From Roseburia hominis (GTDB taxonomy: Bacteria > Bacillota > Clostridia > Lachnospirales > Lachnospiraceae): a DNA stretch of 41,313 nucleotides. The stretch's first letter is position 1; each line of letters begins with the position of its first letter. The notes under the pieces are model-generated. The model searched no databases. It saw only the letters and a program-made list of their open reading frames with translations, and was not told the origin of the DNA. Both the position numbers and the translations under genes were made by a program. Below are positions 1-34,230 of the stretch, piece by piece. Location: positions 1 through 41,313 of the forward strand of contig JAETOE010000031.1 of the NCBI GenBank assembly GCA_021771815.1, read 5' to 3'.

Positions 1-209
1 GAAGCGGAGTGGCATCGGTCGCCCAAGGCGAATGCCATGGACGCTGTGCGTCTATGGCATAATGTCGCCAGACATTATACCCGCCCGGAGCGAAGCGGAG
101 TGGCATCGGTCGCCCACGGCGAATGCCATGGACGCTGTGCGTCTATGGCATAATGTCGCCAGACATTATACCCGCCCGGAGCGAAGCGGAGTGGCATCGG
201 TCGCCCAAG
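1..209. repeat. 91-bp tandem repeat, about 2.3 copies, continuing off the left edge
   Basis: Units start at 1, 92 and 183; the first two are nearly identical and the third breaks off near 209. Each full unit holds three hairpins. In copy 2 these are: GGCAT/ATGCC enclosing TCGCC-CAC-GGCGA (102-127); GCCATGGACGC/GCGTCTATGGC (125-149, one mispair); and ATAATGTC-GCCA-GACATTAT (150-169, perfect). The first loop is CAA in copy 1 and CAC in copy 2 while the stem is kept. The array ends about 60 bp before the response regulator gene. A further perfect hairpin, CATGTGC-GAA-GCACATG, follows at 216-232. The frame open through the array is repeat-encoded and is not taken as a gene. Confidence 0.85.
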
Positions 210-3182: not shown

Positions 3183-3196
3183 ATATAGAAGAAAGG

Positions 3197-3333
3197 TAAC
3201 TATTCAGGACAGATTTATGCGGAACCGCATAAATCGTATGAAAACGTAGAGAATGCAGGAGCAAGCCTCATCAGCGAAGCTGATTTTCATTGGCTTGCGG
3301 CTTGTATCTGTGAAGGTACGGAAACAGATACGA
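3197..3333 (+). repeat. Dispersed structured repeat, copy 1 (137 bp)
   Basis: Nearly identical to 13251-13386, with about four substitutions and one indel. It contains three hairpins: a palindrome at 3212-3235 (GATTTATGCG-GAAC-CGCATAAATC); GCAAGCC/GGCTTGC (3261-3267 with 3292-3298) enclosing ATCAGC-GAA-GCTGAT (3270-3284); and GTATCTGT/ACAGATAC near the right end. It begins 15 nt after the kinase stop codon. It has no plausible reading frame, so a structured RNA or a small non-autonomous element is likely. Confidence 0.85.
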
Positions 3334-3341
3334 TGAAAGTA

Positions 3342-13229: not shown

Positions 13230-13250
13230 AATAAATGTATTGAAATAAGA

Positions 13251-13386
13251 TAACTGTTCAGGACAGATTTATGCGGAACCGCATAAATCGTATGAAAACG
13301 TATAGAATGCAGGAGCAAGCCTCATCAGCGAAGCTGATTTTCATTGGCTTGCGGCTTGTATCTGTGAAGATACTGAACAGATACGA
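13251..13386 (+). repeat. Dispersed structured repeat, copy 2 (136 bp)
   Basis: About 96% identical to 3197-3333 and in the same orientation; it ends 41 nt before the PLP-enzyme start codon and would be part of its leader if transcribed from the TATAAT at 13227. The palindrome (13266-13289) and the GCAAGCC/GGCTTGC hairpin with inner ATCAGC-GAA-GCTGAT (13324-13338) are unchanged. At the right end GTATCT can pair with either of two later AGATAC segments. Confidence 0.85.
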
Positions 13387-13427
13387 AATAAGAAAGCATG
13401 TACGACGAAAATGGAGGGAACAATAAT

Positions 13428-32234: not shown

Positions 32235-32352
32235 CATCGCATCATTGGATGCGATGCCTAAGGACTTCCAACTCGCGTTAGAAGAACGCAGACCCGGCGT
32301 TCTTCGGAGTAATGCGGGAGATGCCTAAGGACTTCCAACTCGCGTTAGAAGA
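32235..32352 (+). repeat. 33-bp direct repeats and hairpins inside the transporter/hydrolase operon
   Basis: Two identical 33-bp copies (32253-32285 and 32320-32352) begin GATGCCTAAGGACTTCC; each can fold through CTTCCAAC-TCGC-GTTAGAAG. Perfect hairpins CATCGCATC-ATTG-GATGCGATG (32235-32256) and GAAGAACGC/GCGTTCTTC (32281-32305) precede or lie between them. None has a terminating T-run. The second copy ends 17 nt before the ribosome site of the next gene. Confidence 0.8.
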
Positions 32353-32379: not shown

Positions 32380-34230
32380 ATGGATCAATTTGTTTTAAAT
32401 CTGATTCACAGACCGGAGATGGTGCCGGAGTATTCGGCGACTGTCACGGGACAGGGAAAGGAAGAGGATATCGGAGATAAGGCGCTCCTTACAGAGTCGC
32501 TTGACATTTTTAAGACACAGCAGAGGCTGGCACATGAGAACGGACTTAAGGTGACGATCCAGATGACCTACGCTTCTCTTTTCAACGATGAAGCGGTGGA
32601 GATTGCGAAGCATGACCATGAGGCGTATGGAGACGAGATTGCTTTGTCGCTGCTCGGACTTCCGTGCGAGGAGTTCCGCGAGAAGTATAAGACAAAGGAT
32701 TTCTGTATCTGGATGTTCTCTATGGAGGACAAGAAAGCCATTGTCAACGATGTGTTCGAGAAGTTCCACGACAGATTCGGTTTCTACCCGGAGTCCACAG
32801 GCTCCTATTATATGGACGCCGATCTGACGAATTACATCAAAGAGACTTACCCGACGGTAAAGTGCGCGGTAGCTACCTGTTGGGAGGAAGGACCGAAGGC
32901 GTACCATACCTGCAACAATTCGTGGTATACGTTATTCGACGGAGGCCCATGGGCGCCGTGGATTCCTTCGAAGCAGAACACACACGCGCCGGCGGCAAAT
33001 GAGGCGGAGGACAGCGGTATCGTTGCAATCCCGCATCTTTCAAGGGATCTGATTGCGTGCTATGACGGAAACGGTTCGAACTTCGGAACGCACCCGCAGA
33101 ACGTGTTGCGTGGAATGATCTACGATACGAAGACCTGGGAGTACCCGTATCTTTACAATCTGATCGACCAGTACCGTGCGCTCGGGAAGTACAACAACGG
33201 CTATGCATACAATATGATGTTTGTAGGACCGGGTTGGATGAATAAGATGGGACGCTGGGAGCAGCCGTATGAGCTTCTCTACAAGTCCTACAGCGACGGC
33301 TGCGCTTACTATGGCAAGCTGAAAAAAGAAGGACAGCTTGTAGATATGACGATGTCTGAGTTCGCGGATTATTACCGCGAGAAAAAGGGCGTGAACGGCG
33401 GCAATTACAATGAGCCGGAGTGCGCGCTCTGGAGAGATATTTTATACGGTTCTGACAAGCAGTTGTTCTGGTACTGCGACCCATATATGCGCGCATGCGT
33501 GAACATGGATCAGGGCGGCGCGATCGTTGATCTCCGTCCGTATGCGGCGAAGCTGGAGTGGCCGGTCGGCATCGGCACGAAGCATGTGCAGGATGCTTCC
33601 TATCCGTTCCTTATCCAGGAGAAGTACCGCGCAGGTTATTTCACACATTATGCAGGCGAGGGTACGGTAAGAAGTGCAAAGCTTTCCTATAAGGGAGAGG
33701 AAGTTGATCTGTGTCTCTGCCCGACGAAGGCGCATTTCTCGCAGGAAGGCAAGACGAGAATACTGACGCTCGATCCGGTGACGATCGAGTTCAGAGATCT
33801 GACCGTTACGCTGCAGACGAAGGAGTATTTCGAGGAGGGCTCTTCCAATATCAAGGTTGAGCGCACCATTCTTGAAATGAGCGATCCGAATGCGGAAGTC
33901 GTATTGAATGAATACATGGTAGCCTGCTACGGTACGACTGAGTATTCTGAGGATATGTCCCATATCACATTGAAGATTGACGGTCCCGAGAAGAAGACGA
34001 TTCCGTATGAGTACAAGTGCCGCGAGGAGAGTGAAGAGGGCGCGACAGAGGTGAGCGCAGTCATTCCTGAAATCGAGACAAGAGTATCCATGACAGCATC
34101 CGATGCGAAGGCAGAGGGATATGTGAAGGAAGGATATGCATTCTCGCCGATGTTTACTTTGGGATACAGAAAAACAATCTCAGATAAGGAGGTATTCGCG
34201 ACATGGCTCAACTTGGCAAAGGCAAATTAA
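32380..34230 (+). CDS. Unrecognised 616-aa protein of the galactoside locus (possible carbohydrate-active enzyme)
   Basis: I do not recognise the family with certainty. There is no signal peptide or membrane segment, so it is cytoplasmic. The first 300 residues are rich in Trp, Tyr, His and Asp, with segments such as ESTGSYYMDADLTNYI, ATCWEEGPKAYHTCNNSWYT, GGPWAPWIPSKQNTHAP and AIPHLSRDLIACYDG. These are spaced like strand ends of an alpha/beta barrel (the GH57/GH38/polysaccharide-deacetylase fold is a guess). From about 420 on it looks beta-rich (TRILTLDPVTIEFRDLTVTLQ). AGGAGG at 32369-32374 fixes the ATG. It lies downstream of the importer genes, and its 3' end overlaps the next small gene by 28 nt. 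Confidence 0.8.
   Translation: MDQFVLNLIHRPEMVPEYSATVTGQGKEEDIGDKALLTESLDIFKTQQRLAHENGLKVTIQMTYASLFNDEAVEIAKHDHEAYGDEIALSLLGLPCEEFREKYKTKDFCIWMFSMEDKKAIVNDVFEKFHDRFGFYPESTGSYYMDADLTNYIKETYPTVKCAVATCWEEGPKAYHTCNNSWYTLFDGGPWAPWIPSKQNTHAPAANEAEDSGIVAIPHLSRDLIACYDGNGSNFGTHPQNVLRGMIYDTKTWEYPYLYNLIDQYRALGKYNNGYAYNMMFVGPGWMNKMGRWEQPYELLYKSYSDGCAYYGKLKKEGQLVDMTMSEFADYYREKKGVNGGNYNEPECALWRDILYGSDKQLFWYCDPYMRACVNMDQGGAIVDLRPYAAKLEWPVGIGTKHVQDASYPFLIQEKYRAGYFTHYAGEGTVRSAKLSYKGEEVDLCLCPTKAHFSQEGKTRILTLDPVTIEFRDLTVTLQTKEYFEEGSSNIKVERTILEMSDPNAEVVLNEYMVACYGTTEYSEDMSHITLKIDGPEKKTIPYEYKCREESEEGATEVSAVIPEIETRVSMTASDAKAEGYVKEGYAFSPMFTLGYRKTISDKEVFATWLNLAKAN

What the first reader, a model, noticed from the sequence alone, without database searches (positions are those of the whole stretch)
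3197..3333. Dispersed 137-bp structured repeat with two copies 10 kb apart
Copies at 3197-3333 and 13251-13386 are about 96% identical, same orientation, in unrelated intergenic regions (after a kinase gene, before a PLP-enzyme gene). All three hairpins are kept, and the few differences cluster in the last one, where GTATCT can pair with either of two AGATAC-like segments. It could be a small mobile element or an undescribed RNA with a switchable 3' stem.
Basis: partly seen in the sequence, partly recalled or inferred. Interest (0 to 1): 0.7.

Follow-up and report, generated by a model that had tools for sequence, protein, structure and literature searches.

The report
Hairpin-rich miniature transposon in gut bacteria
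The repeat is a tiny, gene-less jumping DNA element, probably moved by the enzyme of a larger transposon family, that occurs in many gut bacteria of the Lachnospiraceae and keeps its folded shape even where its letters have changed.

Summary
The two copies are real; exact bounds are 3196-3331 and 13250-13384. They belong to 16 copies in the window's genome, and relatives occur in 31 of 62 genomes of the genus, own included, and in other Lachnospiraceae. Each has ~12-bp inverted ends (GTAACTRTTCAG / GTATCTGTTCAG, worn in some copies). Of 113 elements, 84 have 8-bp target duplications matching at 7 or 8 positions; three relatives lack the second copy. This is a MITE. Its ends and duplication length match single-ORF IS66 (ISBst12-type) insertion sequences, found with such ends in other genomes but not in this one. 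Its hairpins covary strongly (516 cells changed on both sides, shuffles 146). Between co-directional genes 60 copies are in sense and 12 in antisense; target preference explains part. Whether RNA-level selection or DNA-level palindrome maintenance keeps the hairpins is unresolved: a strand-neutral G-U test was negative after composition correction. The proposed switchable 3' stem is not conserved. Verdict: a new MITE superfamily of a known kind, with an open question about its kept fold.

The parts
3188..3195 (+). left target duplication of copy 1, GAAGAAAG
   Evidence: 7 of 8 equal to the right copy
3196..3331 (+). MITE copy 1 (subfamily A), 136 bp
   Evidence: R1 match 148.3 bits; BLAST family
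3196..3207 (+). left terminal inverted repeat GTAACTATTCAG
   Evidence: exact pattern match
3212..3235 (+). hairpin 1, GATTTATGCG-GAAC-CGCATAAATC
   Evidence: fold, covariation
3261..3298 (+). hairpin 2, outer stem GCAAGCC/GGCTTGC with inner hairpin 3270-3284 and a 3' bulge
   Evidence: fold, covariation of the outer stem; inner hairpin position
3304..3331 (+). hairpin 3, GTATCTGT...ACAGATAC; its 3' arm lies in the right inverted repeat
   Evidence: fold, covariation
3320..3331 (-). right terminal inverted repeat, worn: reads GTATCTGTTTCC inward
3332..3339 (+). right target duplication of copy 1, GATGAAAG
13242..13249 (+). left target duplication of copy 2, GAAATAAG
   Evidence: identical to the right copy
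13250..13384 (+). MITE copy 2 (subfamily A), 135 bp
   Evidence: R1 match 154.9 bits; element absent at this site in G053, G034 and G046
13250..13261 (+). left terminal inverted repeat ATAACTGTTCAG
13373..13384 (-). right terminal inverted repeat GTATCTGTTCAG
   Evidence: exact pattern match
13385..13392 (+). right target duplication of copy 2, GAAATAAG

Best explanation
The repeat is a miniature inverted-repeat transposable element (MITE), 132-139 bp in the uninterrupted copies of this genome, with no gene of its own. Its ~12-bp ends are most likely recognised by a DDE transposase of the single-ORF (ISBst12-type) branch of the IS66 family acting in trans, which inserts it into AT-rich targets that tend to begin with GA and duplicates 8 bp. 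The interior is a conserved three-hairpin fold that travels with the ends; a copy between co-directional genes would be read as part of the mRNA. Shown by sequence: inverted ends, 8-bp duplications, copy number, empty sites, covarying stems, sense bias. Inferred: the IS66-type enzyme as mover, co-transcription, any effect on neighbouring genes.
For: Ends: motif GTAWCTRTTCAG occurs 15 times in the own genome against 0 for the reversed control, and 90 against 1 in G021. Duplications: 40 of 53 elements chosen without looking at flanks match at 7 or 8 of 8 (mispaired flanks 0.84%), 30 at length 8, 0 at length 9; 84 of 113; 15 of 16 own copies. Empty sites for copy 2 in G053, G034, G046. Transposase link: L130, a 1824-bp single-ORF element in G075 with ends GTATCTGTTCAG/GTAACTGTTCAG, the same asymmetry as subfamily A, its ORF 72% identical to the L105 fragment; L125 with GTAACAGTTCAG/GTAACAGCTCAG ends like subfamily C; L110 with GTTACTGTTCAG at both ends and a perfect 8-bp duplication; PF03050 in L105, L109, L110, L115, L125, L131. 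Published active ISDge4 of the ISBst12 group: ends GTGACTACTCAGCA/GTAACTGCTCAGCA, 8-bp direct repeat (PMC12898284, passages).
Against: No single-ORF IS66 element with these ends was found in the window's genome; its two PF03050 genes lie in elements with other ends. Only the ~12 end bases are shared with L130, not the interior. L130, L125, L109 and L115 show no 8-bp duplication themselves, and the second end of L131 was not found. Relatives of the L105 transposase are rare: 3 of 62 genus genomes at E <= 1e-20, two of them at 26-28% identity, and 3 of 397 family genomes at E <= 1e-50, fewer than the genomes with MITEs. 29 of 113 elements lack a duplication of 7 or 8 matching bases.
Confidence: 0.87

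Rival explanations
1. A MITE that also carries an RNA structure under selection: the + strand hairpins act in the mRNA (stability, processing or attenuation), so copies persist mainly in sense orientation.
For: Covariation far above shuffles and slid controls; two free positions of hairpin 3 complementary in 82 of 83 matches; 60 sense against 12 antisense between co-directional genes, where target preference predicts 62-68% (p 1e-4 and 2e-3); conserved linker and bulge; G-U 50 against A-C 11 on the model alignment; the inner hairpin followed by T's is the one terminator-like site in each copy, 0.3 and 0.1 expected.
Against: The model alignment is fitted to RNA pairing. A strand-symmetric stem count gave 560:466 over 119 elements and 228:184 over 52 representatives (p 0.004 and 0.03), but against base composition the excess vanished (92:70, p 0.35; other cut-offs p 0.86 and 0.64). 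No transcript data. Gene calls were longest-ORF only.
Confidence: 0.3
2. A MITE whose palindromes are kept at the DNA level, by template-switch correction of imperfect palindromes or by a need for DNA hairpins, without any RNA function.
For: Stems are overwhelmingly Watson-Crick (1419 of 1626 pairs in 50 representatives); helix 1 has no G-U in 330 cells among 33 copies; both strands fold; G-U excess not significant after composition control.
Against: Sense excess beyond target preference; conserved loop, linker and bulge letters outside the stems. The template-switch mechanism is recalled, not tested.
Confidence: 0.5
3. A non-mobile regulatory RNA (riboswitch-like or GA-cis-like) copied by duplication.
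For: Stable conserved fold; sub-threshold Rfam GA-cis matches at 5 places of the own genome, all overlapping copies (best 28.5 bits, cut-off 34.7).
Against: Inverted ends, 8-bp duplications, empty sites; copy number from 0 to at least 53 between species of the genus; no Rfam family at its cut-off in the window.
Confidence: 0.03

Closest known systems
IS66 family, ISBst12 group (single-ORF; e.g. ISDge4, PMC12898284, passages)
   Same: Near-identical ends (GTAACTGCTCAG against GTAACTRTTCAG), 8-bp duplication
   Different: The repeat has no transposase gene, and only the end bases are shared; it would be a non-autonomous dependant, not a member
BOX, RUP and SPRITE repeats of Streptococcus pneumoniae (PMC3049150, abstract and passages)
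   Same: Short intergenic, probably non-autonomous mobile repeats with strong predicted hairpins, likely to affect co-transcribed genes
   Different: Other host and sequence; the paper reports those repeats over-represented between convergent genes, whereas here the copies lie mostly between co-directional genes in sense
Rfam RF02987 GA-cis RNA
   Same: Hairpin with CGAAG loop and 3' bulge like hairpin 2, and a GAUAC aligned to the element end
   Different: All five own-genome matches below the gathering score, a different 3' stem, and no GA-cis match at cut-off in 36 other loci searched
Canonical three-ORF IS66 elements of the own genome (C25, C34)
   Same: IS66 family, ends begin GTAA
   Different: The rest of the ends differs (GTAAGCGATGAATAA..., GTAAA.GTCAAACCA...)

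Membership tests
MITE (miniature inverted-repeat transposable element) | short, no coding capacity for a transposase | tested here: met
   132-139 bp in the uninterrupted own copies
MITE (miniature inverted-repeat transposable element) | terminal inverted repeats | tested here: met
   ~12 bp, imperfect
MITE (miniature inverted-repeat transposable element) | target-site duplication | tested here: met
   8 bp; 40 of 53, 84 of 113 at 7 or 8 of 8
MITE (miniature inverted-repeat transposable element) | presence/absence at orthologous sites | tested here: met
   copy 2 absent in G053, G034, G046; the L003 copy absent in G053, with other sequence differences
MITE (miniature inverted-repeat transposable element) | autonomous partner with matching ends | tested here: inconclusive
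   single-ORF IS66 elements with matching ends in other genomes; none found in the own genome
IS66 family, ISBst12 group | carries a PF03050 transposase gene | tested here: not met
   the element has no gene; it is at most a dependant of this group
Rfam GA-cis RNA | score at or above the gathering cut-off (34.7 bits) | tested here: not met
   best 28.5 bits; 4 of 14 control genomes also ring at E <= 1
functional structured RNA | compensatory changes in stems | tested here: met
functional structured RNA | constraint specific to one strand (G-U tolerated, A-C not) | tested here: inconclusive
   50:11 on the fitted alignment; not significant in the strand-symmetric, composition-corrected count
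functional structured RNA | transcript of defined ends | not testable with these tools
   no RNA-seq data

The most novel reading that the evidence does not exclude
A Lachnospiraceae-wide MITE superfamily whose cargo is a selected RNA architecture: a mobile mRNA module of three covarying hairpins with conserved linker and bulge, kept in sense within transcripts, which can exchange its letters and take up nested modules at one spot while keeping its fold.
Probability: 0.3. Interest if true: 0.7.

Novelty: new member of a known kind. Interest (0 to 1): 0.42.

Why it matters
It gives a precise anatomy (ends, duplication, fold, search model) for an abundant repeat of gut Firmicutes that reaches no Rfam cut-off where tested, explains intergenic copies that could be mistaken for regulatory RNAs, and supplies many natural sequence variants of one fold for testing whether MITE hairpins are kept for RNA or for DNA reasons.

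Tried and rejected
Rfam on the window: no match at gathering cut-offs. Plasmid and phage collections: no match; the tool notes that very near records may be left out. A pair of ends 1.8 kb apart in G016 was thought autonomous but encloses what I read by eye as a DEAD-box helicase gene. The two IS66 elements of the own genome were rejected as parents because of their ends. The switchable stem was rejected. The reading that G-U over A-C proves RNA-strand selection was withdrawn after the strand-symmetric control. GA-cis membership was rejected. No promoter-like site was found around either copy.

Literature: eight searches of a CC-licensed library aimed at prior descriptions listed no paper that, by its title and abstract start, describes this repeat; listings were judged, not the papers, and subscription papers are not covered. 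sought comparators. Seen: passages of PMC12898284; abstract, section list and passages of PMC3049150; one passage of PMC11701678.

A reading frame runs through subfamily A copies into the downstream gene in L002 and L003 but is broken by a stop in the G014 version (seen by eye); set aside as chance.

Full report
Copies at window 3196-3331 and 13250-13384 are 96% identical and in the same orientation. The first begins 13 bp after a histidine kinase gene; the second lies between an AraC-type regulator gene on the other strand and a Cys/Met-metabolism PLP enzyme gene.

Copy number. BLAST finds 8 full copies and one copy interrupted by about 91 bp in the window's genome, and matches in 12 of 60 genomes of the genus. 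A covariance model (R1, from 33 sequences) gives 16 matches at E <= 0.001 in the own genome and matches in 31 of 62 genomes, own included; G021 has 53, equal to the number of candidates scored, so a lower bound. By eye the 16 fall into subfamily A (9), B (1, L283) and C (6, GTAACAGTTCAG ends). Genome G060 of the window's genus shares contig length and sequence with a MAG labelled Roseburia sp., so the window probably comes from a Roseburia-like organism.

Mobility. Of 83 right-end matches, 53 have a left end within 300 bp, chosen without regard to flanks; 30 of these have identical 8-mers outside both ends and 10 have 7 of 8, while mispaired flanks reach that in 0.84%; identity at length 9 occurs in none. 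Over 113 elements the counts are 62 and 22. The 113 are 50 elements from the 52 hits (one weak hit dropped, two hits of one interrupted copy merged), 8 further genus copies, and 55 of the 109 hits; weak, truncated and duplicate hits were dropped. Fifteen of the 16 own copies match at 7 or 8; L003 matches at 6. Targets are AT-rich and tend to begin with GA. At the site of copy 2, G053, G034 and G046 have no element; in G053 the target stretch is present once but has diverged (GAGCAA for GAAATAAG). The copy between what read as fabD and fabG (my reading of the translations) is absent in G053 too, but there about 68 further bases of the own genome are also missing.

Transposase. GTA-initial ends with 8-bp duplications suggested IS66 (recalled). 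Single-ORF IS66-type elements with such ends exist elsewhere: L130, 1824 bp, with the GTAAC/GTATC asymmetry of subfamily A; L125 with ends like subfamily C; L109 and L110 with GTTACTGTTCAG, L110 with a perfect 8-bp duplication. PF03050 was found in L105, L109, L110, L115, L125 and L131; L130 was found by 72% identity to L105 and was not scanned itself. L130, L125, L109 and L115 show no duplication, and the second end of L131 was not found. The published active ISDge4 of the ISBst12 group has near-identical ends and an 8-bp repeat (PMC12898284, passages). No such element was found in the window's genome, so mobilisation in trans is inferred.

Structure. RNAalifold on 33 copies gives three hairpins, with 16 of 25 pairs compensated in at least one sequence. 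On 93 model-aligned copies 95.6% of cells pair (shuffled 72.5%), 516 cells have changes on both sides (146.0), and the covariation score is 0.607 (shuffled 0.180, slid 0.050-0.104). That alignment was fitted to the structure and the sequences are related, so these figures lean upwards. A cleaner point: the scan pattern left two positions of hairpin 3 free, and they are complementary in 82 of 83 matches. Linker and bulge letters are also conserved.

RNA or DNA? With an ORF cut-off of 120 aa, of 113 elements 60 lie in sense and 12 in antisense between co-directional genes, 16 between divergent and 10 between convergent genes, and 15 lack a called gene on one side; other cut-offs give 65:14 and 56:11. 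The own genome alone gives 11 or 12 sense and 0 or 1 antisense. A target matrix from the duplications predicts 62-68% sense in 112 element-free spacers, so part of the bias is target preference; the excess to 83% has p 1e-4 or 2e-3. The matrix was trained on the same insertions, which makes the test conservative; gene calls were longest-ORF only. G-U outnumbers A-C 50:11 on the fitted alignment. A strand-symmetric count also leans that way (560:466, and 228:184 in representatives), but not against base composition (92:70, p 0.35). I leave RNA-level selection as the less likely but open alternative to DNA-level maintenance.

The switch. The second AGATAC-like segment of copy 2 comes from a G-to-A change; 65 of the 71 elements with the motif in their last 27 bases have GGTA there. 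It is not a family feature.

Known families. The element meets the definition of a MITE. In kind it resembles pneumococcal BOX, RUP and SPRITE repeats (PMC3049150, abstract and passages). Rfam GA-cis matches parts of five copies below its cut-off; in three of the five its 3' end falls 5 bases past the element end. This may be a distant relative or chance; 4 of 14 control genomes also show matches at E <= 1.

Verdict. A new MITE superfamily of a known kind, well supported; the open and more interesting question is why its fold is kept.

Noticed in passing
L286:1752-1977 (own genome C51), L171:521-743, L202:506-738: The same nested module (CGCGAGNAACGAGYCA...) sits at element position 98-99, in the 3' bulge of hairpin 2, in 3 of 113 elements from two genera: a recurrent insertion spot.
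   Followed up: partly
L148, L150, L154, L156, L191, L211, L212 (hairpin 1): One clade keeps tandem mismatches (CGAA opposite TGAG) inside an otherwise covarying stem, which looks like a conserved internal motif.
   Followed up: no
window 32253-32352: Two identical 33-nt direct repeats 67 bp apart just upstream of an ATG at 32380; unexplained.
   Followed up: no
window 1-209: 2.3 tandem copies of a 91-bp hairpin-rich unit at the contig end.
   Followed up: no
L081, L082, L085, L087 (G059), L077 (G016), L089, L090 (G033): Other MITE-like elements of 45-176 bp with GTAACTATTCAG or GTATCTATTCAG ends and different interiors, so several unrelated interiors share these ends.
   Followed up: partly
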